A stretch of DNA of 64,000 nt from Streptomyces sp. JJ38 (GTDB lineage Bacteria; Actinomycetota; Actinomycetes; Streptomycetales; Streptomycetaceae), in contig NZ_JABLSI010000001.1 of NCBI RefSeq assembly GCF_019303475.1, positions 178,248 to 242,247 on the forward strand, in the 5' to 3' direction. The translations under genes and the position numbers were made by a program. The notes beneath the pieces were generated by a model that saw only the letters and a list, made by a program, of their open reading frames with translations, made no database searches and was not told the origin of the DNA. This document shows, piece after piece, positions 30,772 through 58,943 of the stretch; the first letter of the stretch is position 1; every line of letters starts with the position of its first letter.

Positions 30772-30776
30772 CCCGG

Positions 30777-35101: not shown

Positions 35102-35131
35102 TGTGCCGGACGGCGCCGCGCACGCCGGACG

Positions 35132-35431
35132 TCACCGGCCTCCGGTCCCACTCCCGTACCCGCCCCCGTCTTCGTTCTCGTCCTCACCCTCGCCCTCGTC
35201 GAACCAGTGGTCGGACTCCTCGCGCAGGTTGGCCACCACCACGGCCACCGGCGGGATCAGCGCGGCCACCACGCTCATGCCGATGGCCAGGGGGACGGAG
35301 AACAGCCGCACGAACGCCCAGGCGCTGACGAACAGCGCGAGGCACAGTGCCATCAGCGCGAAGTAGCGGCGCTCCCGCTTCGGCTGCGAACCGGTCGGGG
35401 GACGCCCGCCCGGGGATGCGCGTCCGACCAT
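35132..35431 (-). CDS. DUF3099-like two-helix membrane protein
   Basis: A 99-residue protein with RERRYFALMALCLALFVSAW and a second helix ending IPPVAVVVANLREESDHWFD, the arrangement of DUF3099-type actinobacterial membrane proteins. The C-terminus is a Gly/Glu-rich acidic tail. It faces the GAF-LuxR gene tail to tail and lies 50 bases downstream of the PaaX gene on the same strand. Function unknown; the family call is from memory of the pattern. Confidence 0.75.
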   Translation of the reverse strand: MVGRASPGGRPPTGSQPKRERRYFALMALCLALFVSAWAFVRLFSVPLAIGMSVVAALIPPVAVVVANLREESDHWFDEGEGEDENEDGGGYGSGTGGR

Positions 35432-35481
35432 GCCTCCAGGCTACGCCCGGCGCCCGCTCGGGGCAGCGGCCGTGCGGGTCG

Positions 35482-36321: not shown

Positions 36322-36355
36322 GCCGTCACTCTAGAGGGATCGCCGGTGGCCGTGG

Positions 36356-38011: not shown

Positions 38012-38132
38012 GGCGGGTTCTCCCCTTGGGCGGCAACCGAAGAAGTTGGTGTTCCGGGCGTGCCGAGGTGCCGTTGAGCGTAGCGTGATGGTGACGACAG
38101 TCAACAGATCGCCATATCAGGAGGTTCGCCGC

Positions 38133-39242: not shown

Positions 39243-39637
39243 CCCTCGACCGCCGCAATCCCGACTCCCTCGCCCGCCCCTCCGGCTTCAGCCACGCCGT
39301 CGTCGCCACCGGCTCCCGTCTCGTCCTCCTCGCCGGCCAGACGGCCCTGGACGCCGACGGCCGCATCGTCCCCGGCGACCTCCCCGCCCAGTTCGAGCAG
39401 GCCCTCACCAACCTCCTCACCGCACTCCGCGCGGCCGGCGGCACCCCGGCCGACCTCGCCCGCGTCACCGTCTACACCACCGACGTCGCCGCCTACCGCG
39501 ACCACGCCCCCGAACTCGGCCGCCTCTGGCGCAAGCACGCGGGCCGCGACTACCCGGCCATGGCCCTCATCGGCGTCACCCGCCTGTGGGACGAGGAGGC
39601 CCTCGTCGAACTCGACGGTTTGGCTGTCCTGCCCTGA
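39239..39637 (+). CDS. RidA-family enamine/imine deaminase
   Basis: A 132-residue RidA/YjgF/UK114 protein, translationally coupled to the acyl-CoA dehydrogenase (ATGA). LVLLAGQTALDADGRIVPGD and TNLLTALRAAGGTPADLARV are conserved blocks. The arginine of GVTRLWDEEALVELDGLAV matches the RidA arginine that binds the carboxylate and supports enamine hydrolysis. Monooxygenation/reduction of anthraniloyl-CoA gives an enamine, so RidA could release its amino group as ammonia. That role is inference from chemistry and position. Confidence 0.9.
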   Translation: MTLDRRNPDSLARPSGFSHAVVATGSRLVLLAGQTALDADGRIVPGDLPAQFEQALTNLLTALRAAGGTPADLARVTVYTTDVAAYRDHAPELGRLWRKHAGRDYPAMALIGVTRLWDEEALVELDGLAVLP

Positions 39638-40657: not shown

Positions 40658-41605
40658 ATGTACGAGCACGATGCCGATCTGCCCCAGAGCACAGCCGCTC
40701 CGCACACCCGCAGCCGCCCGCTTCCCCCGTACCGCGGAATCCTCGCGGTGGACGCCAAGGACTTCACCGGCCGTCCCGCCATCGAGCACGAGGTCATCAG
40801 CCGTCTGGTGCCGGAGCTGCTCCGGACCTCGCTCGAACGTGCCGGTCTGGCACGGGTCTGGGCGGACCGGGTCTTCCCCGCCAGCACGGGGGACGGCTAC
40901 GTCCTCGGCTTCGACCCGACGTTGCTGCCGCTCGTCCTCCACCCCTGGCTGTTGACGCTCCAGGAGACGCTGACCGACTTCAACATCCACTCACATGGGA
41001 CGGTGCCGATCCGTCTCCGTGTGAGCCTGCACGTCGGCCCGCTGCCGGACACCGGCGACGCGTTCGGCGGCAATGGGACCGTGCGGAACGACACGCACCG
41101 GCTGCTGGACTCGACCCCGGTCAAGGCCGTGCTGGCCTCCTCCAGCGAGAACATCACGCACGTGGCCGCCATCCTCTCCGACCGCTGCTACGAGGACGCC
41201 GTCGCAAGCGGCTACACCGGCCGTCATCCGGACCACTTCATCGAGGTGGCGGCGACGGTCGAGGGCAAGCCGTTCGCCCAGAGAGCGTGGATCCACGTCC
41301 CGGCACCATCGGGCCCCCTGCGGAACACAGGGGTTCTCGGCCAGGGCGCACACCCGGGAGACGGGGGGCAGGCACGTCCAGAAGGTGACGACGGCCTCCG
41401 GCCCGGCGAGCGCCACCACGTTACGCAGCACTGGACAACGAACAGCGCACCCAGCGGAAACGTCAATACCGGAACGGTGCAGGGCGGGCAGAGTGTGTCG
41501 AACCACCACACCGTCGGTGACCACGTGGGCGGCAACAAGGCGGGACAGGTCCGGGGCTTCCAAGGCGACCAGGTGCGCGGTGACAAGAACCAGGACCGCC
41601 GGTGA
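40658..41605 (+). CDS. Class III nucleotide-cyclase-like protein with C-terminal GGQ motif
   Basis: A 315-residue soluble protein. The first about 215 residues match the class III cyclase fold: GILAVDAKDFTG supplies metal ligand Asp32, STGDGYVLGF supplies Asp79, and NDTHRLLDS supplies Asn144 and Arg148 at the transition-state spacing N-x3-R. The lysine expected three residues before GD in adenylyl/guanylyl cyclases is Ala75, so the base preference may differ. The C-terminal tail is Gly/Asn/Gln-rich, with SGNVNTGTVQGGQSV (266-280), the motif shared by four proteins here. AAGGA lies 6 bases before the ATG; the stop overlaps the next gene (GTGA). Confidence 0.72.
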   Translation: MYEHDADLPQSTAAPHTRSRPLPPYRGILAVDAKDFTGRPAIEHEVISRLVPELLRTSLERAGLARVWADRVFPASTGDGYVLGFDPTLLPLVLHPWLLTLQETLTDFNIHSHGTVPIRLRVSLHVGPLPDTGDAFGGNGTVRNDTHRLLDSTPVKAVLASSSENITHVAAILSDRCYEDAVASGYTGRHPDHFIEVAATVEGKPFAQRAWIHVPAPSGPLRNTGVLGQGAHPGDGGQARPEGDDGLRPGERHHVTQHWTTNSAPSGNVNTGTVQGGQSVSNHHTVGDHVGGNKAGQVRGFQGDQVRGDKNQDRR

Positions 41606-43656
41606 CGGAGACTGGAGGGCCGGGAAATGCCGAGGAACCGGCACCGGAGGACATGGCGCGTGCGACGTTCGCGTTCAACTACGCTCCCGGTGGCAACATC
41701 AATACCGGTGGCCTCAAAGGCGGGCAGAGAGTAGGCGGTGAGCAGGGCACAGGCCGCCGGGCCAGGGTGCACGAAGGACCGATCCCGCAGAGCGAGGTCG
41801 AGCAGGCGACCTTCGGCTTCGCGGAGCCGAAGTGGTTCTCGGCGGCGGCCGGGACCCTGGGCGGCGGCCTTCTCTTCCTGGCGGGGAGTCCGGGATCGGG
41901 TCGCCGTACCGCGGCACTCAATCTGCTGCTTCGGCATTGCCGGGACGCCGGTTCACTGCGGGCGTTGGACAGTACAACGGTGCTGGACCGGTGGCGACCG
42001 TCGCGTTCCGGTGGCTACCTCATGGAAGGGCTGTTGCCGGACAGACTTACGGCGGGCCTGCTGGGGCACCTGCGGTCTCTCCTCCGTGAGGCCGAGGCAG
42101 TCATGGTGATCGTCCTGCCGGACGATCCCGAACTGCTGCGGGGACTGGGGAAGAACCTCCACCTGCGGCCCGTTGACTGTCAGCCGCCACCTCCGGAGAG
42201 CGTCTTCGAGGCACGGTTCGAGGCGGAGGTACCTCCGCCCGCCGAACGGGAACGGCTGCTGTCGGCCTTGGAACCCGGCCTGCTGGACGAGTTGCTCGTA
42301 CCGAGTCTGATGCCCGCCGAGGTGGTGGAACTCGTGGCGGCCGTAGTGGCGGCCGACGGGGATCGTGCTGCTCTGGGCGACCTGAGGGAGCGTCTCAGCT
42401 ACCGGGCGGAGGACGAGGTGCCGGAGCTGATTCGGACACTGCGCGAGGACGCCTACGGACTGGCCTTCCTCTTGGCTGTCTGTGTCTTCGAGGGTCTGGA
42501 CCAGCGGGTCGTCAGAGAAGAGGCGGACCGGCTGCTGGAGCTGGCGGACGGGCGCCTGACCGCGCGGATACCTGCCAAGGAGGGTGACGAGGGCGGGCAA
42601 GAGGAGCGAGACAATCCGGCGTTCGTCTTCCGCCGGTCACTGACGGATTTGCTACGGGCGGTGGGTGCGAAGCCCGGTGCTCGGGAGATCCGGACGGACG
42701 GAGGCTATGCCCACGTCGTGGAGGCCGTGACGTTCATCCGGCATCAGCAGGCCGAGGCGGTTCTCCGGCACGTGTGGCGAGAGTATGGTCCGCTCTCCGA
42801 TCTGCTGGTGGGCTGGCTCGCTGACGTGGACGGTCGGCGCACGGAGCTGACCCAGCCGGTGGGCCGGGTGATGGGCCTGGCCGCGCGTTGGGGAGGCGGC
42901 CGTCAGGCGCTGGAGCACATCGGGAAGCTGGCCGCGTCCGAGCGTGGCTCCAGTCGACGAATTGCGGCTCACGCCCTGGGCCTCGCGGCGGAGGACCCCG
43001 TTCTGGCGACGGAGGTGTGGCATCGGCTCAGTATGTGGAGCAGGCGGCGCGATCCGTATCTGCGGGCCACTGTGGCGCATGCCTGCGGTGACACGTTCGG
43101 GCAGTCCCGCCCCGAGGCGGCCTTGCGGCTGTTGGGTGAGGTGGCCTTCGGCACCGGAAGCGGCGCCGAAGACGCGGTGGTGTCGGCTGCGGTGGGCACG
43201 GCGCTGGCTCAGCTATTCTACGCAGGCGAGGAGCAACGTGTGTTCGAACAGTTGGCCCGGTGGGCGGCGGATCCGCCGAATGGAGCCGCCTCGCTGTTGG
43301 CGGTGTTCCCAGCCCTCCTCGCCTCACCCCGGTGGTTCCAGCGGGAGCTGGCAGCGCGGACGGAAACCAGTGAGCGCATCGTGGACATGGTGCGGGCGTC
43401 GTTGAACTCCGCGGAGACCTTCGACGCGACGAGCCGCGTCCTGCTCCGCTGGTGTTCCGACGCGAGGTGGGACGAGGATCTCACGTGTGCGGTCGAGCAC
43501 TTGGTACACGCGCTGGCCAACCCGCTGGACCACGGCGCGTTCCGGTTCTTCGTCGACTTGGATCGCGATGACCAGTCAGGCACGTCTCGGCTCGTGGGAC
43601 AGGACATCGCTCAGAAAGCCCTCACCCGATGGCGACGAGGGAGGACGCAGGCATGA
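41602..43656 (+). CDS. STAND-like P-loop NTPase with N-terminal GGQ motif (paralogue 1)
   Basis: A 684-residue protein. Residues 30-44 are GGNINTGGLKGGQRV, the shared motif. A P-loop follows at 95-103 (GSPGSGRRT) with the canonical lysine replaced by arginine, then a Walker-B-like hydrophobic strand ending in acid (AVMVIVLPDD). The C-terminal 300 residues are helical and repeat-like (VAHACG, LLRWCSD), perhaps a superhelical sensor. It is a clear paralogue of the protein at 45091-47088: motif, GRRTAALN P-loop and C-terminal blocks occur in the same order. GTG start coupled to the cyclase-like gene; its stop overlaps the next ATG. Function unknown; a signalling or conflict ATPase is inferred. 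Confidence 0.8.
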   Translation: MTETGGPGNAEEPAPEDMARATFAFNYAPGGNINTGGLKGGQRVGGEQGTGRRARVHEGPIPQSEVEQATFGFAEPKWFSAAAGTLGGGLLFLAGSPGSGRRTAALNLLLRHCRDAGSLRALDSTTVLDRWRPSRSGGYLMEGLLPDRLTAGLLGHLRSLLREAEAVMVIVLPDDPELLRGLGKNLHLRPVDCQPPPPESVFEARFEAEVPPPAERERLLSALEPGLLDELLVPSLMPAEVVELVAAVVAADGDRAALGDLRERLSYRAEDEVPELIRTLREDAYGLAFLLAVCVFEGLDQRVVREEADRLLELADGRLTARIPAKEGDEGGQEERDNPAFVFRRSLTDLLRAVGAKPGAREIRTDGGYAHVVEAVTFIRHQQAEAVLRHVWREYGPLSDLLVGWLADVDGRRTELTQPVGRVMGLAARWGGGRQALEHIGKLAASERGSSRRIAAHALGLAAEDPVLATEVWHRLSMWSRRRDPYLRATVAHACGDTFGQSRPEAALRLLGEVAFGTGSGAEDAVVSAAVGTALAQLFYAGEEQRVFEQLARWAADPPNGAASLLAVFPALLASPRWFQRELAARTETSERIVDMVRASLNSAETFDATSRVLLRWCSDARWDEDLTCAVEHLVHALANPLDHGAFRFFVDLDRDDQSGTSRLVGQDIAQKALTRWRRGRTQA

Positions 43657-44534
43657 GTGAAGTGGTTTCCGACGGACTGTTCCAGCGAATGAACACAGCC
43701 CCATGGCGGGCGATTCTGCGGTACCGGTGGGTGTCGCCCCGGGGGCGTGCGCTCGTCGTTCGAGACCGGGCCGGTGAGTACTACCTGCTTTCGCGAGTCG
43801 GTGTGCCGGGCGAGCCAGGTGGAGACCTTCCGCTCGCCGACGACGTGCCGTCACCCCGGCTGGGAGGCGGCTATGCGGACGCTTTCGAGGTAGATCTGAC
43901 GGAGCGGCTCCATACTCGGGCGGTCGGCCTCCCGACCGTCTACGGAACCGAGTCCATGGATCTGTATGTCTCGTGGTGGGTGCATGACCCCGTGCGGGTG
44001 GTGCAGTCCCACACTGTGCACGGTTGGCATGTTGTGAGCGTCGAGCTCACCCGCGCTCTGACCATCCTGGATCAGACCCGGCGCGGGGCACAGCGCGAAC
44101 TGGGCCCGCAGGACATCCTGCGCCACCTCGGTGACCCGAAACGTCTGGACGCGGTCGGCCTGACCTACAGGGTTTTCGACGTGCGACGCCGGGAATCGCC
44201 GGACGAGCTGATTCTCGGGCGGTTGAGCGATGCTCCTATGCCCGATTCCTGGACCGTCAATCGACGAGGCGAGTACGAGTTCTGTCTCCAGGCTTTGCGT
44301 AACGGGCCGGCGTCATTGGCGGCGCTGTGGCTCCTGCGGTGTCCCGACCAGGTGAGCCAGGTAGTGGACTGGGCCGTTGCGCACCAGGACCTCCTCGCGC
44401 CCCACACAGATTGGCAAGAGGAGATGGCCGCACTGCTCGGCATGTTGTCGGAGCAGGAACGCGAGGAACTCTCCCACCTCCTGTACGAGCGGGTGACGGC
44501 CCTCGGTCATCGCATGCCAAATCCTGGGAGCTGA
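43653..44534 (+). CDS. Possible SPFH/band-7-like protein, 293 aa
   Basis: Translationally coupled to the P-loop gene by ATGA. The central part (MDLYVSWWVHDPVRVVQSHT, then GWHVVSVELTRALTILDQ) recalls the core of SPFH/band-7 domains, which form membrane scaffolds, but no membrane segment is visible. The C-terminal third is helical (CPDQVSQVVDWAVAHQDLLA, LSEQEREELSHLLYERV). It is the last gene of the first operon, before a strong terminator. The SPFH idea is a weak resemblance only; otherwise unknown. Confidence 0.7.
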   Translation: MSEVVSDGLFQRMNTAPWRAILRYRWVSPRGRALVVRDRAGEYYLLSRVGVPGEPGGDLPLADDVPSPRLGGGYADAFEVDLTERLHTRAVGLPTVYGTESMDLYVSWWVHDPVRVVQSHTVHGWHVVSVELTRALTILDQTRRGAQRELGPQDILRHLGDPKRLDAVGLTYRVFDVRRRESPDELILGRLSDAPMPDSWTVNRRGEYEFCLQALRNGPASLAALWLLRCPDQVSQVVDWAVAHQDLLAPHTDWQEEMAALLGMLSEQEREELSHLLYERVTALGHRMPNPGS

Positions 44535-44585
44535 CAGCCCGATACGCAGAGCTGAGCCGGGCTGAGGAACGGATAGACGAAGGGG

Positions 44586-44615
44586 ATGGGCAGGCCGCTC
44601 CGGTGGCCTGCCCAT
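44586..44615 (+). terminator. Rho-independent terminator
   Basis: ATGGGCAGGCC pairs perfectly with GGCCTGCCCAT (11 bp) around an 8-base loop, followed by TCTTGTTGTT. This is a textbook intrinsic terminator and closes the cyclase/P-loop/SPFH-like operon, so the genes from 44787 form a separate transcript. Confidence 0.85.
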
Positions 44616-44786
44616 TCTTGTTGTTCCCCGGGCCTGCGATGCCTATTCCCAGGTGCATCCCGGTGCCCGCTTCCGGGTCACCCTGTTCGGTTTGTGGCCA
44701 CCAACACTCCTTCTGTGCACTGGTGAAGCGGATGAAGCCCTGAATTCCTGGGAATCTCGTTGTGTCAGAGAATCCGGTCGTCAGGC

Positions 44787-45098
44787 ATGTCGACCGATGA
44801 GCGTTCCTGGAGGAATGAATTGCGTGAGCATGACGAAAGCGCGACCGAACTCTCCGGCATTGGGGAAGGAACGCACAGCGCCCTGCGAGGCGAAGAGGCC
44901 GGCGTGCGGCCGCAGGAGTCCGGCCGCCCGCCCGCGCTGCTGCGTCCCGAGAATCCCGCGCCCGCACGGTTGAACCCGTACACCGGCGGGATGCGCGCCG
45001 ATGGCGGGATCATCAACACCGGCATTGTGCACGGCGGGCAGCACGTCACGGACATCACTGTCGCGAAGGGCGAGGCGTGGGGTGTCGAAGATGACTGA
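44787..45098 (+). CDS. Small GGQ-motif protein, 103 aa
   Basis: A disordered-looking protein rich in Glu, Arg and Pro whose only conserved-looking element is GGIINTGIVHGGQHV (73-87), matching the motif in the cyclase-like and both P-loop proteins. It has no enzyme domain, so an adaptor or nucleating role is plausible. It overlaps the following P-loop gene by 8 bases. The ATG at 44787 is the best start; no strong ribosome site is visible. It is called a gene mainly because the motif matches its neighbours and the gene is coupled to the next. Confidence 0.6.
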   Translation: MSTDERSWRNELREHDESATELSGIGEGTHSALRGEEAGVRPQESGRPPALLRPENPAPARLNPYTGGMRADGGIINTGIVHGGQHVTDITVAKGEAWGVEDD

Positions 45099-47088
45099 TG
45101 AGGGGCACAGGCCGGAGGATCCGCTCGGCGGCATCCCACCGGAGTTCTTCCAGGACCGCTCGTTGTTGGTCGTTGCGAACGGTGTGGTGAACGCCGGTGT
45201 CGTCAACGGGGGGCAGCGTTACACGAAGGTGGCCGAGGCAGCGGCGGACGAGATGACCGCACCGACCCGACAAGGGCCGGTACGGTCACAGGACCTCCGG
45301 AGGGCCCGGCGCGTCTTCGTACCGCCTTCCGGTCACGCCGAGGGGCTCGGCGCACTCGAATCCGGCTTGCTGCTGCTCGTGGGTGCGCAGGGCACCGGTC
45401 GCCGCACTGCGGCCCTCAACATGCTCGCCCACGGGCACGAGAAGCCTGCCCTTGTCCAACTCGACGGGCACACCGACCTGGTCAACTGGCGTCCTGCGCC
45501 GGACGGGGTGCACGGGTACCTGGTCATGGACCCTGCAGACCCCCGTGCACTGCGCCCGTGGGATCTGGCCAACCTCGAACAACGGGTCACGGGCGCGGGC
45601 GCGCGACTCGTCATCGTGCTCGTGGAGGAGCCAGGTCTGGTCAGGGCACTGCGGAGGGAACACGGCCTTCCGGTGTTCCGGCACGTGCCACCGGACCCGA
45701 GGGATGTCTTCACCGCTCACTTGACGGAGCTGTGCCCGGACCCCGGCGAGCGAGAACGGCGCATGAAGGCGCTCGGCTTCGACGTGCTCAGCGGCCTGCT
45801 ACCCGCTGAGCTGCCCCCGGGGCATGCGGTCTCGGTGGCGGAGGCAGTGGTCCGGTCCGCTCCTGAAGGCGAGCCGTGTCCGGGCTCGGTGACCTCCGCG
45901 CTCGCCGAGGCGGAGGCCGCTGAACTGCTGGCCGTGTCCGAGGAGGACACGGAAGCGCTGACGCTCCTGCTGTCCGTGTGCGCCCACAGTGGCCTGGAGA
46001 CGAGCACAGTCATGGACCGGGCTGGGGCTCTGCGCCACCTTCTCGTTACTGGTCCGAATCCGGATGCTGTGTCAACGGTGCTCCCGCGACGCCTCCAGCC
46101 GGGGGTCTTGCGCCGCATCCGGACCAGACCTGTGACCACACCTCATGGAGACGAGCGAGTCGAACTGCTGTGGCCTGCCGTGGCGGAGGCGGTGTGGGAT
46201 CTCGTGTGCGGAGAACACCCGGAGCTGTTGCCCTCGCTACACCGCTGGCTTGCCATGACGGCTGAGGGTGACGAGGAGATCAGCCAGGCCGCCCGGGTGT
46301 TGTCGGGCCTCGCCGCCAGGACCGGCGGCCGGACCTTGACTTTGATGGGTGATGTAGTCGTGCCCCTCGCGCCGTCGGGCCCCGGCGTGGCTGCCCGGTG
46401 CCTGGCCAATGGACTGCGGCACACCGAGGCCGGGGCTGTGGCGCGTCAGGTGCTCGGCGAATGGAGCATGGCGGCCGAACCCGCCCTGCGCACTGCCGTT
46501 GCCCACGCCTGCGGCTGGGCCGGAGAGGCACTGGCATCCGAGGACGTCTTGGAGCTGCTGCAGCGCGTCGTCGACCGGTCAGACACGGTCGAGACGCCGA
46601 CGTGCGCTGCTGTGGTCACCGCCTTGGCTCGGCTCTTCTCCGCTGGCGGGCCCGAGGACCGGCGTACCTACGTCCGTCGCCTGATCGCCTGGTCGCGGGG
46701 CGAGGATGTCGTTGGCCGCCTGGCCACGCGGGCGTCTTCCGCGCTACTGCACGCGGATCCTGCCTGGTTCGGTGAGCAACTGAGGAGCGATGGCGAGGAC
46801 GCGGACGCGGTGCTGGAACTCCTCGTGCGCGCGCTCAACGAGGCAAGGTCGTTCTACGCGATGCGGGATGCGCTCCTGGGCTGGTGCAGCGCGACGGAGC
46901 AGGGGCTGACGCCCCGTCCACCGCTGGAGAAGTTGTTCGCGCGGTTGGTCGACACCCGCCAGCCCGGCGCTCTGCGTCTCCTGCTGTCCATTGAGCGCAG
47001 CGGAGACGCCACGCCCGGCAGAGATCTCGCCGAGCGGGCCCTAGCGGCATGGCACAGCAAGAACGTCTCGAAGGAGGGGACCTCATGA
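45091..47088 (+). CDS. STAND-like P-loop NTPase with N-terminal GGQ motif (paralogue 2)
   Basis: A 665-residue paralogue of the protein at 41602. Its motif GVVNAGVVNGGQRY (31-44) has Asn34 and Gln42 at the same residue numbers as paralogue 1. The P-loop is GAQGTGRRTAALN (98-110), again with arginine for lysine, followed by ARLVIVLVEEPG. C-terminal helical blocks (VAHACGWAGEAL, ALARLFSAGG, LLGWCS) repeat the paralogue's order. It overlaps the small motif protein upstream and the 248-residue protein downstream (ATGA). Probably an ATP-dependent or ATP-binding signalling switch; hydrolysis is uncertain. Confidence 0.8.
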   Translation: MTDEGHRPEDPLGGIPPEFFQDRSLLVVANGVVNAGVVNGGQRYTKVAEAAADEMTAPTRQGPVRSQDLRRARRVFVPPSGHAEGLGALESGLLLLVGAQGTGRRTAALNMLAHGHEKPALVQLDGHTDLVNWRPAPDGVHGYLVMDPADPRALRPWDLANLEQRVTGAGARLVIVLVEEPGLVRALRREHGLPVFRHVPPDPRDVFTAHLTELCPDPGERERRMKALGFDVLSGLLPAELPPGHAVSVAEAVVRSAPEGEPCPGSVTSALAEAEAAELLAVSEEDTEALTLLLSVCAHSGLETSTVMDRAGALRHLLVTGPNPDAVSTVLPRRLQPGVLRRIRTRPVTTPHGDERVELLWPAVAEAVWDLVCGEHPELLPSLHRWLAMTAEGDEEISQAARVLSGLAARTGGRTLTLMGDVVVPLAPSGPGVAARCLANGLRHTEAGAVARQVLGEWSMAAEPALRTAVAHACGWAGEALASEDVLELLQRVVDRSDTVETPTCAAVVTALARLFSAGGPEDRRTYVRRLIAWSRGEDVVGRLATRASSALLHADPAWFGEQLRSDGEDADAVLELLVRALNEARSFYAMRDALLGWCSATEQGLTPRPPLEKLFARLVDTRQPGALRLLLSIERSGDATPGRDLAERALAAWHSKNVSKEGTS

Positions 47089-47831
47089 GGGGGCTGACCG
47101 GACCGCCGCCCCGGCTCTTTGACGTAATCGACTACAGGGTCACGGAACTGGGACTGCTGTCGGAGCTGCGAATCGACGTGGAAGCCGAGTGGTACAGCGC
47201 CGGTCCGGCGATGTCGCTCACCCTGGAGCAGGCGCGCCGGATGTTGTTCGACACGTCGGCAGAATCCGAGGCACGACACGCGGTGTGGCTGCGCCTCGCG
47301 GAACTGGCCCGGCGAGACACCGACCGGGAGCGCTGGCCACTTGCCGCGGTGTGGGTGGGGCTCCCGGGGCTGTACCGGACAGTGTTCCGGATCGTCCGCC
47401 GGCTCCGAGCCGAAGTAGCCGACGTTGAAGCGGAGCTGCTGGTCGGCTATCTGGAGGCGCTGCGGGAGATCGGACCGGAGACCCCGGATCCTGGGACCAA
47501 GCTGCTGCGCACAGCATGCCGGCGGGCCTGGGAAGCGGCGCGATCCGGAGCCGGGGAGTCGGCGGTCGAGGATGTGGAGGCCACCGCCGCCGCTGTCGGG
47601 ACACATGCGCCGGAAGGTGTCTGGCAGGCGGAGTTCGACGCTCCCGGCCGACCCGATGGCCTCACGGCGAGCGTGCGGATCACTGTTCCGGCACATCGTG
47701 TGGAGGGCGTACGCGTCGGGGCGTTGGCCCGGGCCTGGGGACTGAGCGACGTGGCCACCGGAACCGAGCTGCCGCGCCGGGGGCGCCGGGTGGGCTCGCT
47801 GTCCCTGCGGAGCGTCGGGAGGCGAACGTGA
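47085..47831 (+). CDS. Helical protein with weak sigma-factor-like region, 248 aa
   Basis: Starts at an ATG overlapping the previous stop (ATGA) and ends in GTGA overlapping the HTH gene. The segment VEAELLVGYLEALREIGPET, followed by LLRTACRRAWEAAR, recalls region 2 of divergent sigma-70-like factors, but no clear region 4 is present. The N-terminal part (DVIDYRVTELGLLSELRIDV) is not recognised. Tight coupling to the P-loop protein and to a DNA-binding protein suggests it takes part in transcriptional output of the system. Function unknown. Confidence 0.65.
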   Translation: MRGLTGPPPRLFDVIDYRVTELGLLSELRIDVEAEWYSAGPAMSLTLEQARRMLFDTSAESEARHAVWLRLAELARRDTDRERWPLAAVWVGLPGLYRTVFRIVRRLRAEVADVEAELLVGYLEALREIGPETPDPGTKLLRTACRRAWEAARSGAGESAVEDVEATAAAVGTHAPEGVWQAEFDAPGRPDGLTASVRITVPAHRVEGVRVGALARAWGLSDVATGTELPRRGRRVGSLSLRSVGRRT

Positions 47832-48100
47832 GCGACCGTGACCAGACGCCGTTGTCCTTCCGAGAGGTCATGAACCTCCCGGTGAGCGTGGACTTGAGAA
47901 CCGCGTCCAGGGCATTCGGAATATGTCTGGCTACCGCGTACCGGCAGGTGCGGCTCGGCACTTTTCCCTGCGAGACGATCCGTGTCGGCCGCCGCCATCG
48001 GGTTCGCACTGTGGATCTCATGCGGGCCCTCGGTATCGAGGAGCGGCCGATCTACGCCGACGACCTCGCTGACGGCGTCGCGCTGACTCTCTTCGAGTGA
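47828..48100 (+). CDS. Small HTH (excisionase/MerR-like) DNA-binding protein
   Basis: A 90-residue protein with a helix-turn-helix of the HTH_17/excisionase kind: TASRAFGICLATAYRQVRLG then FPCETIRVGRRHRVRTVDL. The GTG start is fixed by the GTGA overlap with the previous gene. Such proteins are small DNA-binding regulators of mobile elements or local operons. No integrase is present, so a regulator of this operon is more likely than an excisionase. Confidence 0.75.
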   Translation: MSDRDQTPLSFREVMNLPVSVDLRTASRAFGICLATAYRQVRLGTFPCETIRVGRRHRVRTVDLMRALGIEERPIYADDLADGVALTLFE

Positions 48101-48157
48101 TCGCCCGCCCCCGCGCTGCCTCTGTGCCAGCTAGTCCCTGTGTTGAGGAGACCGACC

Positions 48158-49219
48158 ATGCCCACGTGCTTTGCGCTTGGGACGCGCACCGCGTTCTACG
48201 AGGACGTCGTCAGGCCCGTATGCCGACAGCTCGACCTGGCCCTGATCCGGGCTGACCATGTCATGGAGAACGGGGCGCTCAGCGAATCCGGGATCCGTCA
48301 CCTCACCGCGGCAGACATCCTCGTCGCGGACCTGACCGGTCGGAGCCCGGAGGTTGTCCACGGGCTTCGCATCCGACACGCGTTCGGCCTCTACTCCGTG
48401 CAACTCGGCGAGACGGGCGCGGCACCTTTTGCCGACGGAATGTTTCCCTCCATCGTTCACTCCGCTCTGCCGGTGGGATCCGCCGAAGCGCGCGAGAAGC
48501 TGACGGCGGCGCTGGCGGAGCGATTCCCGGAGGTGCTGGCCGCCCCGCGCTCGGGCCCGTACCAGCCGGTGACGCTGGCCGGGAGGACTGCGATGACCGG
48601 GACCACGAGAGTGCCGGAGCAAGCGCTGGGCGACGCCTGCGGTAAGCCGGTGGCCTCCGAGGCTGAGCCTCCCGGACTGCTCGATCAAGTGGCCCTCGCC
48701 GAAGCGGAGATGGAGTCAATCGCCGAGGCTATGACGGAGGTGGAGGTGGCGATCGCGGATCTGGCTGCGATGGCTGAGGTGTCCCAGGAAGACATCCGTC
48801 GGTCCGGGCAGCCGGGCACCCCGATGGGTGCCCGGCTCGCGGCCGTCAACCGATTCGCCGCCGCGATCGAGGGGCCAGCCGAGGAACTGGAGGCGGCAGC
48901 GTTGCGCTTCGCGGAACGCATGAAGGTCACCGTAGACGTCACGGGGGCCGGCATCCAGTGGGTGCGGGACATGCCGCGTGCCGATTGGCCCGACGGCACG
49001 GTGCGCATGCTCGACCAGGTGGTTGAAATGGCCGGTGACATCCGGGAAGCGGCGTCCGGCATGCAGGGGCTTCGGCAGTTGCTTGCGATGTTCGGCACTA
49101 TGAGCAGCCGTGCCCGGAAGCCGACCCGGAAGATCGGGAAGGCGGTGGAAGCCATGTTCGGAAGCGTGGTCGAGCTGGAGCAGTGGGCCCATGTCGCACG
49201 GGAGTTGAAGGTGGAGTAG
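48158..49219 (+). CDS. Nucleoside-deoxyribosyltransferase/TIR-like protein with helical tail
   Basis: A 353-residue protein. Residues 1-80 fit the DRHyd/TIR-like fold: MPTCFALGTRTAFYEDVVRP, the RADHVMENG loop and AADILVADLTGRSPEVVHGL. The Asp of VADLTG (58) is kept, but the catalytic Glu of the usual YELG is replaced by Gly69 (VHGL), so base hydrolysis may be lost. The rest is helical and Ala/Glu-rich (EAMTEVEVAIADLAAMAEVS). GAGGAG precedes the ATG, 57 bases after the HTH gene. In related immune systems this fold acts as an NAD/nucleotide effector or a ligand sensor; here a sensor role may be more likely. Confidence 0.75.
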   Translation: MPTCFALGTRTAFYEDVVRPVCRQLDLALIRADHVMENGALSESGIRHLTAADILVADLTGRSPEVVHGLRIRHAFGLYSVQLGETGAAPFADGMFPSIVHSALPVGSAEAREKLTAALAERFPEVLAAPRSGPYQPVTLAGRTAMTGTTRVPEQALGDACGKPVASEAEPPGLLDQVALAEAEMESIAEAMTEVEVAIADLAAMAEVSQEDIRRSGQPGTPMGARLAAVNRFAAAIEGPAEELEAAALRFAERMKVTVDVTGAGIQWVRDMPRADWPDGTVRMLDQVVEMAGDIREAASGMQGLRQLLAMFGTMSSRARKPTRKIGKAVEAMFGSVVELEQWAHVARELKVE

Positions 49220-53998: not shown

Positions 53999-55420
53999 GT
54001 GAGCGCGATACCGCGGGCTCACACCCTGGACCTGCATCTGGAGCTCGACCTGCGGCAGCGGCGCGGCCGGCGGGAGCAGCTCGTGGCGGCCCTGCGGCGG
54101 GCGGTCGAGTCCGGCCGTCTGCCGCCGGGAGCCCGCCTGCCCTCCTCCCGCAGCGTCGCGGCCGAGTTCGGTATCGCCCGCGGCACCGTCGTCGCCGCCT
54201 ACCAACTCCTCCTCGCCGAGGGCTACCTGGAGACCGTGCAGGGCTCGGGCACCCGGGTGGTCGGCACCGTGCCCCCGACTCCCCGGGCCGCCGCTCGGTC
54301 TGCTCTCACTCCCTCACCCGTGGCCCGCAACGCGCGGCGGTACAGCTTCCAGCCGGGCATGCCCGACGTCACGCTGTTCCCGCGCAACGCCTGGATCAAG
54401 TCGACCCAGCACGTGCTCACGACGGTTCCGGCCGAGGCCCTGGACTACGGAGATCCCCGGGGCCGCATCGAGCTGCGCCAGGCCCTGGCCGACTATCTGG
54501 CCCGGAGCCGCGGCGTGATCACGCAGCCCGAGCGGATCGTCATCTGTCACGGCTTCACCCAGGCGCTCGGCCTCATCACCACCGTGCTGGCCGAGCACGG
54601 GGTGGACACGGTCTCCGTGGAGAACCCGTGCTACCCGCTGTTTAGGGACGTCATCCAGCTCGCCGGGCTAGGCGTCCACACCGTCGACGTCGACGGGGAC
54701 GGGCTGCTGCCGGCCGGACTCGCCGGCGGCGCCGCGGTCGTCACCCCGATCCACCAGTACCCGCTGGGCGTCAACCTGGCCACCGAGCGCCGCAGGGCGC
54801 TGGTCGACTGGGCCAAGGACGTCGACGCGGTGATCGTGGAGGACGACTACGACAGCGAGTTCCAGTACGGGAAGCAGCGGGTGGGTACGCTGCAGCCCAT
54901 GGCGCCCGACCGCGTCATCTACGCGGGGACCACCAGCAAGACGCTGGCCCCCGGCATCCGGCTGTCCTGGCTCGCGGTTCCTGCGGACTGGGTCGAACGG
55001 ATCACCAGCGCCAAGCGGATCGCCGACCGGCACACCGCGGCCCTCACCCAGATGGTCATGGCGGACCTGCTGCTGTCGGGCGCCTACGACCGGCACATCC
55101 GGCAGTGCCGCGACCACTACCGCAGGCGGCGGGACCAGCTCAGCGGGGCGCTGGCCGAGCACGCGCCGACGGCCTGGCTGGCGGGGGAGAGCGCCGGGCT
55201 GCACGCCCTCGTCCGCTGGTCTCCGGAGGGGCCGGCGGAGCGCGAGGTGGTGCGGGCGGCGCGCAGCGAGTCCCTCACCGTCGTCGGGCTCGGCGGTTAC
55301 TGGGGCACTCCCGGCCCGCACGCGCCCGGGCTCGTCATCGGGTACGCCACGCCGCCGCGGCACGCGTTCGCCGGAGCCCTGGACGCGCTGAGCCGGGTCC
55401 TCGCCCGCTGCTTCGGCTGA
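53999..55420 (+). CDS. MocR-family regulator (GntR HTH + aminotransferase fold)
   Basis: A 473-residue MocR/PdxR-type protein. The GntR winged helix spans LVAALRRAVESGRLPPGARL, PSSRSVAAEFGIARGTVVAA and LLAEGYLETVQGSGTRVVG. The fold-type I domain has the PLP lysine in YAGTTSKTLAPGIRLSWLAV and the VEDDYDSEFQYG block. Start: GTG at 53999 gives a family-length N-terminus; the frame is open further upstream with no similarity. MocR proteins bind direct-repeat sites near target genes. Its convergent neighbours are the CreE/CreD-like genes, whose upstream region has such repeats. Confidence 0.9.
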   Translation: MSAIPRAHTLDLHLELDLRQRRGRREQLVAALRRAVESGRLPPGARLPSSRSVAAEFGIARGTVVAAYQLLLAEGYLETVQGSGTRVVGTVPPTPRAAARSALTPSPVARNARRYSFQPGMPDVTLFPRNAWIKSTQHVLTTVPAEALDYGDPRGRIELRQALADYLARSRGVITQPERIVICHGFTQALGLITTVLAEHGVDTVSVENPCYPLFRDVIQLAGLGVHTVDVDGDGLLPAGLAGGAAVVTPIHQYPLGVNLATERRRALVDWAKDVDAVIVEDDYDSEFQYGKQRVGTLQPMAPDRVIYAGTTSKTLAPGIRLSWLAVPADWVERITSAKRIADRHTAALTQMVMADLLLSGAYDRHIRQCRDHYRRRRDQLSGALAEHAPTAWLAGESAGLHALVRWSPEGPAEREVVRAARSESLTVVGLGGYWGTPGPHAPGLVIGYATPPRHAFAGALDALSRVLARCFG

Positions 55421-55472: not shown

Positions 55473-56885
55473 CTAGTGGAGGGCGCGGTCGACCAACGTC
55501 CCCGCCGCGCCCACATAGCCCTCGGGGTCGCACAGGGCCTCGATCCGCTCCCGGCCCAGCGCCCGCGCCACCGCGGGGATCTCCGCGAGAATCCGGGCCA
55601 GCGGCGCCCCGGTACGGGCGGAGCGCGCCGAGGCCTCGGTGAGCAGTCGCCTCGCCTCGGCCTTCCCGAGCCGGGGCGCCAGATGGGCGGTCACGCGCTC
55701 GGAGACGAGCTGACTGCCGGTCAGCTCCAGGTTGGCCGCCATGCGTTCCGGGTGCACGGCCAGCCCCTCGGTGAGCTCGACGGCCGTGTGGGCGGCGCCC
55801 CCGGTCAGCCGCAGAGCCTCGCGCAGCAGCTGCCACTCGGCGTGCCACGCCCCGCCGGACCTCTCGTCCTCGGCCATCAGGCACTGCGTCAGCCCCGTGC
55901 AGAGGGCGGGAACCTGGAGCGCCGCACTGCGGATCAGCGTGGCCAGGACCGGGTTCCGCTTGTGCGGCATGGCGGAGGATGCGCCCCGGCCCTCACGGGC
56001 CTGCTCGGCCACCTCCCCGATCTCGGTGCGGGAGAGCGTCTGCACATCCAGGGCCAGCTTGCCGAGGGCCCCGGCGGTGAAGGCGAGGGCGGCGGCGAGG
56101 TCGGCGACGGGCGTGCGCAGCGCGTGCCAGGGGAGCGGCGGCCGGGCGAGCCCCGTCTCCGCGGCGAAGGCGTCCAGCAGCTTGTCGGGGTAACTCTCGG
56201 GCTCCACCGGGTCCGTGCCGTCCACCCCTTCCGCGTCCACCCGGGCGTACTCCAGATACCCCGCCAGCGTGCCCGCGGCTCCGCCGAGCGAGAGGGGGAG
56301 CCCGCCGTCGAGTACGCGGTCGACGCGGTCGTGCGCGTCGAGGAGGAGCTGCCGCCAGCCGGCCGCCTTGAGGCCGAAGGTGGTCGGAACCGCCTGCAGG
56401 GCCAGGGTCCGGCCCGCCATGGCCGTGTCGCGGTGCTCGTGTGCCATCCGCCCCAGCGCCTCGGCCGCACGGCACAGATCGGCCCGGATCAGCTCCAGAG
56501 CCCTCCGGGCGACCAGCATCGCGCCGGTGTCGAGGATGTCCTGGCTGGTCGAGCCGCGGTGGACGTACTCGGCCGCCGCCGGGTCGTCCGCCGCCACGGC
56601 GGCCGTCAGCGCCCGTACCAGAGCGACGACCGGATTGGCCGTCTCCCGCGACTCCACGGCCAGCGCCCGGACGTCGAAGCGTTCGGCACGGGCCGCCGCG
56701 GTGATCGCCTTGGCGCGGGCTGCGGGCACGGTGCCGAGCGTGGCCTGCGCCCGGACCAGTGCGGCCTCGGCGTCGAGCATCGCCTGCAGCCAGGCGACGT
56801 CGGCGACGGCCGACTCGACCGGCGTGCCGGCGCGTACCGGGGAGAGGAGACCGGAGTCGGGCTGCCGGTCGTCGGGCGCGGTCAT
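55473..56885 (-). CDS. creD: Nitrosuccinate-lyase-like (CreD-type) aspartase/fumarase-family enzyme
   Basis: A 470-residue lyase with EYVHRGSTSQDILDTGAM, and the signature GRGASSAMPHKRNPVLATL containing the catalytic serine loop. The family includes adenylosuccinate lyase, carboxymuconate cycloisomerase and CreD. Its coupling (ATGA overlap) to a CreE-like FAD monooxygenase is the arrangement of the aspartate-nitrosuccinate pathway, in which CreD splits nitrosuccinate into nitrite and fumarate. No protocatechuate genes are nearby, which argues against PcaB. The activity is inferred from the pair, not from diagnostic residues. Confidence 0.75.
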   Translation of the reverse strand: MTAPDDRQPDSGLLSPVRAGTPVESAVADVAWLQAMLDAEAALVRAQATLGTVPAARAKAITAAARAERFDVRALAVESRETANPVVALVRALTAAVAADDPAAAEYVHRGSTSQDILDTGAMLVARRALELIRADLCRAAEALGRMAHEHRDTAMAGRTLALQAVPTTFGLKAAGWRQLLLDAHDRVDRVLDGGLPLSLGGAAGTLAGYLEYARVDAEGVDGTDPVEPESYPDKLLDAFAAETGLARPPLPWHALRTPVADLAAALAFTAGALGKLALDVQTLSRTEIGEVAEQAREGRGASSAMPHKRNPVLATLIRSAALQVPALCTGLTQCLMAEDERSGGAWHAEWQLLREALRLTGGAAHTAVELTEGLAVHPERMAANLELTGSQLVSERVTAHLAPRLGKAEARRLLTEASARSARTGAPLARILAEIPAVARALGRERIEALCDPEGYVGAAGTLVDRALH

Positions 56886-58843
56886 GAGGCCACCTCCACA
56901 CGCGTGGACTCGGGCTGCCGGGCCGCCGGGCCCAGCGCCAGGACGGTACGGGCGATGGCGTCGGCGTCACCCAGGCTGACGGAGTCGACGCCGGGGCGTG
57001 CCGCGGCCGCCGTCACCCAGTGCACGGACTCGGTCGGCACGCCGTGCGCGAAGCGCCGCGGGTGAGGGCGGCCGTGGGCGTCGACGAGGCGGCTGGGGCG
57101 AGGCGTCACCGTCATCCCGCCCGTCTCGTAGCGGACTCCGCAGCCGCCGTCGATCCGGAACGGCGTGGCCTGTCCCCCGTCCCGCAGCCGGCGCATCAGC
57201 GGGTCGGCCGTACGGCGCAGGTCGGGTTCGGGCAGCCGGGCCTCGATCAGCACGCGGGCCCTGACCGGCGGTGCCGGTATCCGCTCCGAGACGCAGACGA
57301 AGGCCGGATCGCGCGTGTCCACCCGGATCGTCGCTCCGGGACCGGTCACCTGGAGGACTCCCGCCCGGATCAGGGCGATCATCTGCTCGATGCGGAAGGC
57401 CGGAGGGCCGATCGACGTGAACGCGTTGAGCGGCGTGTACCAGCCGTCCAGTTCGTCGCGGTGGGAGTTCCCGTCCAGCCCACCGTGGTCGACGGCGAGC
57501 CGTACCTCGTTGCGCAGGTCGCGCAGGACGTCGAGGGCCGCCTTGACCGGATCGCTGACGTTTCCGCCGCGTGCCTGCCGGACGTCCCGCTCCAGGTAGG
57601 CGATGAGCCAGGTGTGGAACGCCTCCCGGTCGGTGAACGCCGTCCCGGCGCAGGGGTGGGCGAGCCGTTCCCAGTTCCAGCGGCTGTCCTGCGGTATGCC
57701 GAAGGCGTCCAGCACCTCGCCCCGGTGCTCCGGCCGTTCGGCCGCCAGATACAGCTCGGTGAACGCCGCCCGGTCGGCCTCGCGACCCCGCCGGGCCAGC
57801 AGTGTCTCGTAGTAGACGCTTTCGACCTCGCGGGAGATCAGGGGCCACAGGTCGGTGCCGAAGTAGATCCGGTCGCCGTCCTTCGCCCGCTGCCGGAGCC
57901 CGGCGATGCGCTCGGCGGTGAGCAGCCTCGGGAAGTAGCGCCCGTGCGCCCCCTTCTCGTTCTCGCCCCTGGCGTGGTAGGGAATGCCGCGCCGCGAGGT
58001 GGCGCACAGCAGCGGTTCCAGACCGGAGGGTTCGTAGACGAGGCTTCCGCCCCGCCGTGTGAACGTCCCGCCGCGGCCGCTGGTGAAGAGCGCCAGATAG
58101 TCGAAGAAGTTCAGCCCCAGGCCGCGCAACAGGACGGTGTCCCGTGGCGTGACGGCGCCGAGCTCGACGTCGGCCGGGTTGGCCGGGGCGACGTAGTGGA
58201 GCCCGAGCTCGTGGGCCCTGGCGTTCAGCGCCCGCTCCTCGGCGCCGAGTTCGGCTGCGACGTGGCCCTGGGAGAGGACCACGGCGTCGAGCCTTCGGAG
58301 CAGCCGTCCGTTCTCCAGCCGGATGCTCTGCTCGGGCACCTCCTCGGTACCGCCGGTGAGGGCCACGGCCCGGCTCCGGTGAGTGGTGATCTCCACGTGA
58401 GGCGGTGCGTCGCGGCACACGCGTCTGAACATCTCACGCAGGTAGGCGCCGAAGAACGCGCGCGTGGGGTAGTCGTCCGGGCCGAGCGACCCGGCTTCGG
58501 CCAGGGTCGGCGCGTCCTGCGGGCCGAGGCCCGTCGCGCCGGAGGCGCGCAGTTCCTCCGCCCAGGCGTACAGGCTGGGGCCGGGCTCGACCGGACCGTC
58601 CATCGTCACGGTGAGATCCGTGAACACGGTGATCTGGGAGGCCACGGTGTTCATGAGCAGTTCGCGGGACTGGTCGGTGCGCCAGACGGCGCCGGCGCCC
58701 GCCGGCCACGGGTCGACGAGGTGGAGGCGGACGCCCTGAACCGACGGGGTGTGGCGGGCGTTGGCGCACAAACGTTCCAGCACGGCGAGGCCGCGCGGGC
58801 CGACTCCGACGACGGCTATCGACAAGGCTCGGGTGGCTGCCAA
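56882..58843 (-). CDS. creE: FAD-dependent L-aspartate N-monooxygenase-like (CreE-type)
   Basis: A 653-residue protein with N-terminal FAD motif SIAVVGVGPRGLAVLERLCA and further FAD_NAD_binding (PF13454-like) blocks: GAGAVWRTDQSRELLMNTVA, VVLSQGHVAAELG, LLRGLGLNFFDYLALFTSGR. Length and architecture fit the CreE/FzmM monooxygenases that oxidise L-aspartate to nitrosuccinate. First gene of a two-gene operon with the CreD-like lyase. The nitrite made by the pair normally feeds diazo or N-N bond formation, but no such tailoring genes are visible. Start ATG at 58843 sits behind a GAGG-like sequence. Confidence 0.75.
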   Translation of the reverse strand: MAATRALSIAVVGVGPRGLAVLERLCANARHTPSVQGVRLHLVDPWPAGAGAVWRTDQSRELLMNTVASQITVFTDLTVTMDGPVEPGPSLYAWAEELRASGATGLGPQDAPTLAEAGSLGPDDYPTRAFFGAYLREMFRRVCRDAPPHVEITTHRSRAVALTGGTEEVPEQSIRLENGRLLRRLDAVVLSQGHVAAELGAEERALNARAHELGLHYVAPANPADVELGAVTPRDTVLLRGLGLNFFDYLALFTSGRGGTFTRRGGSLVYEPSGLEPLLCATSRRGIPYHARGENEKGAHGRYFPRLLTAERIAGLRQRAKDGDRIYFGTDLWPLISREVESVYYETLLARRGREADRAAFTELYLAAERPEHRGEVLDAFGIPQDSRWNWERLAHPCAGTAFTDREAFHTWLIAYLERDVRQARGGNVSDPVKAALDVLRDLRNEVRLAVDHGGLDGNSHRDELDGWYTPLNAFTSIGPPAFRIEQMIALIRAGVLQVTGPGATIRVDTRDPAFVCVSERIPAPPVRARVLIEARLPEPDLRRTADPLMRRLRDGGQATPFRIDGGCGVRYETGGMTVTPRPSRLVDAHGRPHPRRFAHGVPTESVHWVTAAAARPGVDSVSLGDADAIARTVLALGPAARQPESTRVEVAS

Positions 58844-58909
58844 AACGTGCTCCTCACGGGAGAGGGAAGCAGGGCTGCCGATGAAGCTAGGTCACCCGAC
58901 CGGGCCTGA

Positions 58910-58943
58910 ATGGTCCACTTTTCCGCGGCTCACATGGTCCACT
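58910..58943. promoter_or_regulatory. Two direct repeats upstream of creE (MocR-site candidate)
   Basis: ATGGTCCACT occurs twice on the plus strand (58910-58919 and 58934-58943), 24 bases start to start, 67 bases before the creE-like ATG on the minus strand. MocR regulators of the PdxR kind bind direct repeats that often contain a TGGWCC core. The MocR gene at 53999-55420 is the nearest candidate. Confidence 0.6.

What the first reader, a model, noticed from the sequence alone, without database searches (positions are those of the whole stretch)
55473..58843. Stand-alone CreE/CreD-like nitrite-forming (aspartate-nitrosuccinate) cassette
A CreE-size FAD/NAD-binding protein and an aspartase/fumarase-family lyase overlap by 4 bases on one strand, as in the cremeomycin and fosfazinomycin pathways, where they make nitrous acid from aspartate. 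The usual diazo- or hydrazine-forming partners are not visible. An orphan nitrite source next to a MocR regulator could serve an unknown N-N natural product or nitrite/NO signalling.
Basis: partly seen in the sequence, partly recalled or inferred. Interest (0 to 1): 0.8.

Follow-up and report, generated by a model that had tools for sequence, protein, structure and literature searches.

The report
Nitrite-making gene pair with own regulator
Two overlapping genes that very probably turn aspartate into nitrite sit beside their own regulator and, going by relatives, probably feed a separate gene cluster elsewhere in the genome that uses nitrite to build a nitrogen-nitrogen bond; if right, this would help explain where such clusters get nitrite when they cannot make it themselves.

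Summary
The pair is real. The lyase (55473-56885) passes NCBI's nitrosuccinate-lyase model and is 70% identical to CreD; the flavoprotein (56882-58843) is 55% identical to a solved L-aspartate N-hydroxylase; the catalytic residues checked are present. A stand-alone creE/creD operon is a known arrangement.

What looks new is the control and the customer. A MocR regulator (about 54.0-55.4 kb) has orthologues in eight further genomes found here. In eight of the nine, a tandem AGTGGWCCAT-like box (24-bp period, -10 box 30 bp on) lies at creE, even where MocR is on another contig. The ninth shows no creE; there the same site sits at a nitrate-transporter/nitrate-reductase-like operon adjoining an aminobenzoate/diazotase-type cluster. 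The window genome has the orthologous cluster, without creE/creD, on another contig. Best reading: a dedicated regulator drives nitrite supply, from aspartate here, acting in trans for that cluster. Enzyme function is very likely, regulation likely, the in-trans customer inferred; four of the nine genomes lack a close match to that cluster's diazotase-like enzyme. No chemistry was tested.

The parts
56882..58843 (-). creE-type L-aspartate N-hydroxylase (nitrosuccinate synthase), 653 aa, TTG start
   Evidence: PF13454; 55% identity over 594 aligned residues to PDB 8cp2; substrate/catalytic residues conserved. The TTG start with an upstream GAGGAG is also present in L054.
55473..56885 (-). creD-type nitrosuccinate lyase, 470 aa
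   Evidence: NCBIfam NF052556 773 bits (cut-off 650); 70% identity to CreD 5xny; published nitrite fingerprint residues and SS-loop conserved.
56882..56885 (-). 4-bp ATGA overlap of creE stop and creD start
58934..58943 (-). operator box 1, AGTGGACCAT
   Evidence: tandem site scoring 18/18; only zero-mismatch match to the search pattern in the genome; similar site at creE in seven other MocR-bearing genomes
58910..58919 (-). operator box 2, AGTGGACCAT, 24 bp start-to-start from box 1
58884..58889 (-). -10-like hexamer TAGCTT, 30 bp after start of box 2
   Evidence: same spacing in all nine sites; promoter activity not tested
53999..55420 (+). MocR-type regulator (GntR HTH plus PLP aminotransferase-like domain), convergent with creD; longest ORF starts at 53828
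   Evidence: PF00392 + PF00155; orthologues in eight further genomes; PLP lysine conserved

Best explanation
creE/creD is a stand-alone aspartate-nitrosuccinate operon: CreE oxidises L-aspartate to nitrosuccinate with NADPH and O2, and CreD splits it into nitrite (nitrous acid) and fumarate. It is switched on by the neighbouring MocR-type regulator, which binds two direct AGTGGWCCAT-like boxes just upstream of the -10 element of creE. The nitrite is most likely used in trans by an ATP-dependent diazotase in an aminobenzoate-type cluster elsewhere in the genome (contig C24). Shown here: enzyme family, catalytic residues, single copies, the site and its co-occurrence with MocR, the cluster without creED, and the same site at a nitrate-reductase-like operon in a relative without creE. 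Inferred: enzyme activity, direct MocR binding, activation rather than repression, MocR's ligand, diazotase activity, and use of this nitrite by that cluster.
For: Enzymes. MocR is tail to tail with creD in the window and its three closest creE relatives (L054, L034, L055) while most other flanking genes differ; these four creE form one clade, SH-aLRT 100, quick tree. Site score >=16 in 4 of 94 creE upstream regions, exactly those four; the other 90 reach at most 14, including L084, which has a more distant MocR (49%) nearby. Zero-mismatch pattern match once per genome in G000, G337, G238, G392, always at creE. Prediction written first, then tested on five further MocR orthologues found with MocR alone: in the four genomes with creE the site is at a creE (G740, G482, G476, G576; scores 17, 16, 17, 16), including G576 where creE and MocR lie on different contigs. 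Fisher 4/4 vs 0/90 p=3.3e-7; without G740, close kin of S. chumphonensis, 3/3 p=7.7e-6; 21 of 5774 control tiles of 360 bp reach 16. The fifth, G755, has no creE match at E<=1e-60; its site is upstream of narK/nasC/reductase-like genes beside the whole aminobenzoate/diazotase block. The orthologous block is in G000 C24 and G392 C49 without creED; in G392 a NasC-like and a reductase gene overlap the end of that operon. Its AMP-binding enzyme nests among creED-linked ones. A block enzyme of >=78% identity is in 5 of 9 MocR genomes.
Against: No expression, binding or chemistry data. The block itself carries no site >=16, so regulator and consumer are linked only by genome comparison. G337, G238 and G482 have MocR, site and creED but no diazotase-like match at E<=1e-60, and G576 has only a 40% one, so some such cassettes feed something else. 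Outside the creE/narK sites the pattern has background: G576 has four zero-mismatch matches, none at its creE (whose site has mismatches to that pattern), G482 has none, and the reversed control gives 3, 0, 1, 2 and 7 matches in G755, G740, G576, G482 and G476. G576 and G476's second creE were scanned over 500 bp, the controls over 360 bp. G476's block holds another creE (no CreD match in the 40 kb read) with best score 13. G755 may lack creE through assembly gaps (99% complete, about 110 contigs). The block's AMP-binding enzyme scores only 60 bits on the AvaA6 diazotase model (cut-off 975), so 'diazotase' rests on clade and context. A second, more distant candidate consumer lies on C38. The motif was defined on four loci, so those four are no independent test. 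The lyase also just passes the PcaB model (358.8 vs 355.75).
Confidence: 0.68

Rival explanations
1. The nitrite serves another consumer in this genome: the prenylated-aromatic-type cluster on C38 with a more distant AMP-binding enzyme, or several clusters share one source.
For: G000:C38:53318-54958 encodes an AMP-binding enzyme inside the creED-linked clade; neighbours include UbiA, polyprenyl synthase, LytB and a Pyr4-like cyclase. Azamerone is a published case of a creED operon away from its cluster (PMC11705231, passages); that it is a meroterpenoid is recalled.
Against: Only 37-40% identical to the fam-2 queries used; long branch; not found in S. chumphonensis at E<=1e-30, which has the same MocR-creED unit.
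Confidence: 0.15
2. General nitrite/NO supply: signalling or chemical nitrosation of metabolites such as siderophores, with no dedicated cluster.
For: Three of nine MocR genomes show no diazotase-like match at E<=1e-60 and a fourth only a 40% one; a NO-synthase gene lies beside MocR-creED in G476. Nitrosated desferrioxamines from a Streptomyces nitrous acid pathway are recalled, not read here.
Against: In G755 the same regulator type and site are attached to a nitrate-reductase-like operon adjoining the diazotase-type block. NO-signalling genes of the window genome were not searched.
Confidence: 0.12
3. MocR is a vitamin B6 regulator (PdxR) and its neighbourhood with creED is incidental.
For: MocR passes NCBIfam PdxR (385 bits, cut-off 320); its boxes resemble the reported PdxR repeat AAAGTGGW(-/T)CTA (PMC4494728, passages).
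Against: The only zero-mismatch match in G000 is at creE; the site is at creE even where MocR is unlinked (G576); in the listed rows (a capped list, four candidates scored per genome) MocR sequences outside the group reach at most 53% identity. pdxST promoters were not located.
Confidence: 0.04
4. The lyase is a PcaB-type cycloisomerase and the flavoprotein unrelated to CreE.
For: TIGR02426 (PcaB) is just passed, 358.8 vs 355.75.
Against: Nitrosuccinate-lyase model 773 vs 650; 70% identity to CreD; coupled to an aspartate N-hydroxylase homologue with the checked site residues.
Confidence: 0.01

Closest known systems
creE/creD of cremeomycin; fzmM/fzmL, azpE/azpD, avaE/avaD, cmaE/cmaD (aspartate-nitrosuccinate pathway)
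   Same: Same two enzyme types; catalytic residues conserved. The overlapping creE-creD order is the commonest among 94 loci compared here.
   Different: Those lie in the cluster that uses the nitrite (PMC11705231, PMC10777205, passages); here the pair stands apart with its own regulator and site.
creE/creD operon of Streptomyces sp. CNQ-525, away from the azamerone cluster (Sugai et al. as told in PMC11705231, passages)
   Same: Operon at a locus different from the cluster it is thought to serve.
   Different: The passages read mention no regulator or operator; here a MocR and site recur across genomes.
ava-like clusters without ANS genes, 72 of 134 (PMC10777205, passages)
   Same: Diazotase cluster without its own creE/creD; encoding elsewhere was offered as one possibility.
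   Different: The C24 block is aminobenzoate-type with a PabAB; a specific candidate source and regulator are named here.
PdxR/GabR and other MocR regulators (PMC5320631, sections 9 and 11 and passages; PMC4494728, passages)
   Same: Domain make-up, PLP lysine, direct repeats about two helical turns apart.
   Different: Predicted target is a nitrite-forming operon (or a nitrate-reductase-like one), not B6, GABA, taurine or ectoine genes.
Alanosine clusters proposed to use nitrate/nitrite reductases (PMC11705231; PMC12154649; passages)
   Same: Nitrate reduction as an alternative nitrite source for N-N chemistry.
   Different: Here both source types sit under one regulator/site type in related genomes.

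Membership tests
Nitrosuccinate lyase (CreD) | Passes NCBIfam NF052556 | tested here: met
   773.2 bits, cut-off 650
Nitrosuccinate lyase (CreD) | E49/H118/D125/H253/R341 fingerprint and SSxMPxKRNP loop (PMC13411527, passages) | tested here: met
   present as E40/H109/D116/H254/R342; loop SSAMPHKRNP (chain-to-CreD numbering set by me so that the loop Ser is 302); also in L054, L034, L055
Nitrosuccinate lyase (CreD) | Releases nitrite from nitrosuccinate | not testable with these tools
   needs protein
L-aspartate N-hydroxylase (CreE/FzmM) | Residues of the aspartate/catalytic site: R13, N62, R266, R276, R409, R412, N413, R416, R577 (PMC10404684, section 8) | tested here: met
   9 of 9 conserved in the window protein; of the outer-tunnel arginines R593 kept, R597 is Ala. 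In L055 the R13 position was not covered by my called start
L-aspartate N-hydroxylase (CreE/FzmM) | Clade with characterised CreE/FzmM | tested here: inconclusive
   only 8cp2 was a characterised anchor, on a long branch, and no non-CreE outgroup was included
PcaB (3-carboxymuconate cycloisomerase) | TIGR02426 as best-scoring family | tested here: not met
   358.8 vs cut-off 355.75, passed narrowly, but nitrosuccinate lyase scores 773
MocR regulator | GntR HTH plus aminotransferase domain with PLP lysine | tested here: met
   PF00392, PF00155; K314 conserved in all ten aligned sequences
PdxR | Operator at pdxST or other B6 genes | tested here: inconclusive
   NCBIfam PdxR model passed, but the single zero-mismatch site in G000 is at creE; pdxST promoters were not located
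ANL diazotase (CreM/AvaA6 type), C24 block | AMP-binding enzyme in the creED-linked clade | tested here: met
   42-row ingroup without outgroup rows, support 100, quick tree with long outgroup branches; no characterised diazotase in the tree
ANL diazotase (CreM/AvaA6 type), C24 block | Passes AvaA6 diazotase equivalog NF058622 | tested here: not met
   the S. chumphonensis orthologue L192:17823-19412 scores 59.8, cut-off 975; it is therefore called diazotase-like

The most novel reading that the evidence does not exclude
A portable nitrite-supply regulon: one MocR orthologous group and one fixed promoter code can be attached to different nitrite generators (aspartate route, nitrate transporter plus reductase, perhaps NO synthase) and work in trans for unlinked diazotase clusters, with MocR sensing demand by forming a PLP aldimine with an amine such as aspartate or an aminobenzoate-type intermediate.
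Probability: 0.35. Interest if true: 0.8.

Novelty: new variant of a known kind. Interest (0 to 1): 0.62.

Why it matters
About half of the ava-like diazotase clusters in one published survey (72 of 134; PMC10777205, passages) lack nitrite genes, and in another study every creD/creE homologue found, except those of strain CS057, lay outside called clusters (PMC11429834, passages). A conserved regulator and site that mark nitrite-supply operons would let one pair such sources with their customers by sequence, and would help find diazo and other N-N natural products. The same site at a nitrate-reductase-like operon suggests that the regulon may be defined by its product, nitrite, and not by one enzyme.

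Tried and rejected
Rejected: PcaB/PurB identity of the lyase. Rejected: a diazotase of the creED-linked kind inside the window; the five window genes of AMP-binding family 19 lie outside that clade, though only 29 of 56 window genes were searched against families. Judged unlikely: that MocR beside creD is mere neighbourhood, because the site is at creE in G576 where MocR is on another contig.

Led nowhere or weak: the MocR search in 150 relatives found only the window itself at E<=1e-140; the plasmid search gave 33 records with creE relatives, at most 61% identical in the 15 rows shown, not followed up; no tRNA in the window. No site of score >=16 in the C24, G392 C49 or C38 stretches. A score-16 site overlapping the MocR start in G476 did not match the full pattern with the -10 spacing, and a score-16 site within the L204 reductase genes lies inside genes; both are given no weight. 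B3/4-domain genes upstream of MocR occur in two of the first four loci.

Failed part of the prediction: only G740 is tail to tail; G482 is divergent, G476 about 4 kb away, and G755 and G576 have no creE/creD within the 20 kb read.

Dropped before counts: seven duplicate loci (L035, L039, L043, L047, L049, L050, and L053, the window's own neighbour) were left out of the 94-locus counts. G734 and L054's G392 are the same strain (17 kb identical) and are counted once. Genome samples overlap and were drawn, not complete; place lists are capped, and only 3 or 4 candidates per genome were scored there.
Full report
OBSERVATION. creE starts at a TTG 76 bases downstream of the start of the second operator box; the same TTG with a GAGGAG in front is seen in the closest named relative, S. 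chumphonensis (L054). Each gene is single-copy in the 5.89 Mb genome.

WHAT THE ENZYMES ARE. The lyase passes NCBIfam's nitrosuccinate-lyase equivalog (773 bits, cut-off 650); it also just passes the PcaB model (358.8 vs 355.75), which I take as family background. It is 70% identical to CreD (PDB 5xny), and the 16 positions I checked are identical, including the fingerprint proposed for nitrite-handling members (PMC13411527, passages and section 8). The flavoprotein's only PDB match at E<=0.01 is 8cp2, 55% identical over 594 residues. I take 8cp2 to be the L-aspartate N-hydroxylase of Streptomyces sp. V2 (PMC10404684; abstract and sections 4 and 8 read): chain length and residue numbers fit, but the PDB code was not seen in the text read. 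Of 12 positions checked, 11 are identical; R597 of the outer tunnel is Ala.

NOT NEW IN ITSELF. A review (PMC11705231, passages) reports that Sugai et al. found a creE/creD operon away from the azamerone cluster and the pathway widely distributed. PMC11429834 (passages) found its strains' creD/creE homologues outside called clusters except in CS057. In my sample 305 of 392 genomes of the genus have a CreE relative at E<=1e-60, which includes more distant paralogues.

THE REGULATOR. I compared gene neighbourhoods of 94 creE loci. MocR lies tail to tail with creD in the window and in its three nearest creE relatives (L054, L034, L055), while most other flanking genes differ. These four creE proteins form one clade (SH-aLRT 100, quick tree). 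In 392 genomes the listed rows show a MocR above 53% identity only in the window and two others, and both are such loci (capped list).

THE SITE. Upstream of creE the four loci share two direct repeats, AGTGGWCCAT-like, 24 bp apart. Scored over 94 creE upstream regions, exactly these four reach 16 or more out of 18; the other 90 reach at most 14. In each of the four genomes the only zero-mismatch match to the pattern is at creE; with one mismatch allowed, total matches do not exceed those of the reversed control, taken over the four genomes together. MocR regulators often use direct repeats one or more helical turns apart (PMC5320631, section 9), and the PdxR repeat AAAGTGGW(-/T)CTA is similar (PMC4494728, passages).

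A TEST MADE BEFORE LOOKING. I wrote down the prediction after finding more MocR orthologues with the MocR sequence alone: 7 of 394 genomes at E<=1e-135, namely the window, S. chumphonensis again (G734, same strain as G392) and five new ones. Outcome: G740 tail to tail, site score 17; G482, another genus, MocR divergent from creE, score 16 in the shared intergenic region; G476, a third genus, creED about 4 kb from MocR with a NO-synthase gene between (PF02898), score 17; G576, creE/creD on another contig than MocR, score 16 about 100 bp upstream of creE; G755, no creE match in the genome at E<=1e-60. So the tail-to-tail part failed for four of five, but in all four genomes of this group that have a creE a creE carries the site; a second creE in G476 does not (score 13). 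Against the 90 controls Fisher gives 3.3e-7, or 7.7e-6 without G740; 21 of 5774 control tiles of 360 bp reach 16. In one search, zero-mismatch matches to the earlier pattern were at creE in G740 and G476 and at the narK-like operon in G755; G482 had none and G576 four elsewhere, so that pattern alone would have missed those two. With a -10-like TASSKT exactly 30 bp from the start of box 2, a slightly looser pattern occurs once in one locus of each of the nine genomes; the 18 further hits in 2.7 Mb of held sequence are re-fetched copies of those sites.

THE SWAP. In G755 the site lies in front of an operon of a NarK-type transporter, a NasC-like nitrate reductase and two NirB-like FAD reductases, with MocR next. 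These are best or near-best NCBIfam models but all below cut-off (NasC 723 vs 1100, NarK 272 vs 312, NirB 242 and 392 vs 578). The two reductases match only the first 458 and 395 of 794 NirB positions, so they appear to lack the nitrite-reducing half. On the other side is a whole aminobenzoate/diazotase-type block. So with no creE found, the same regulator type and promoter code sit on another likely nitrite source, next to a likely nitrite user.

THE LIKELY CUSTOMER. The orthologous block is in the window genome on contig C24 (60.1-78.6 kb) and in S. chumphonensis on C49 (240.9-259.1 kb), about 111 kb from its creED; in G740 the distance is about 117 kb. For the window genome contig lengths put block and creED at least about 80 kb apart. 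The block encodes a fused aminodeoxychorismate synthase (TIGR00553 passed), a PabC-like aminotransferase, DAHP synthase, a benzoate-CoA-ligase-like enzyme, FAD hydroxylases, a BBE-type oxidase, an aldehyde-dehydrogenase-family protein and two more AMP-binding proteins, one being the diazotase-like enzyme, which was scanned as its S. chumphonensis orthologue. That enzyme nests in a clade of AMP-binding proteins found within 10 kb of creE in 35 of 94 loci; in L037 its gene overlaps creE by 4 bp. In S. chumphonensis a NasC-like gene and a reductase gene overlap the end of the block's operon. The window genome has no second creE or creD. A block enzyme of at least 78% identity is in 5 of 9 MocR genomes; G576 has only a 40% match, and G337, G238 and G482 none at E<=1e-60.

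HOW IT MOST LIKELY WORKS. MocR, with PLP and an amine ligand (unknown), activates creE from the two boxes; box 2 would overlap the -35 region. CreE makes nitrosuccinate from aspartate, CreD releases nitrite, and the nitrite reaches the diazotase-like enzyme of the C24 block. Activation, ligand, diazotase activity and the customer are inference.

PRINT. The search for MocR with nitrous acid, diazo and nitrosuccinate terms lists 12 of 28 papers, none with MocR in its text. Cluster-situated regulators are described (LysR-type cmaR in PMC10777205, a LuxR gene in the crx cluster of PMC11429834; passages), but in what I read of the searches I saw no dedicated regulator of a stand-alone creE/creD operon. 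Only open-licence PMC papers are held, so absence elsewhere is not shown. Papers seen: PMC13411527, PMC10404684 and PMC5320631, abstract or outline, named sections and passages; PMC11705231, PMC11429834, PMC10777205, PMC4494728 and PMC12154649 (a preprint), passages only; all others as search listings.

Noticed in passing
window 40658-49219: Six called genes of 248-684 aa without any Pfam match (E<=1e-6), two of them (684 and 665 aa) in one sequence cluster, in a stretch of lower GC (about 0.67-0.70) next to a Crp-like regulator.
   Followed up: no
window 28480-39637: Aromatic-acid-catabolism-like region (PaaX regulator, three AMP-binding ligases, FMN oxidoreductase). Relatives of its right part flank the diazotase-type block in S. 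chumphonensis, and relatives of genes right of the window flank the other side, so that block and the window's creED region occupy matching places.
   Followed up: partly
L207:13247-14419 (-): A NO-synthase oxygenase gene lies between MocR and creED in G476, next to ATP-grasp, MFS and AMP-binding genes.
   Followed up: partly
L037, L045, L046, L052, L065, L068, L126: 7 of 94 creE loci also carry relatives of the NasC-like reductase, NarK-type transporter and FAD reductase genes within 10 kb, so aspartate and nitrate routes to nitrite may lie side by side.
   Followed up: partly
L072: creE and creD appear fused in one ORF, as reported for SpiED (PMC11705231, passages).
   Followed up: no
L038, L044, L064, L075, L077, L081, L087, L104, L106, L112, L113, L115, L128: 13 of 94 creE loci show no CreD-like gene in the stretch read; some are cut by contig ends.
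   Followed up: no
G000:C38:44001-64000 (L194): Prenylated-aromatic-type gene group with a second, more distant creED-clade AMP-binding enzyme.
   Followed up: partly
plasmid collection: 33 plasmid records hold a CreE relative at E<=1e-100, 31 of them from Streptomyces.
   Followed up: no
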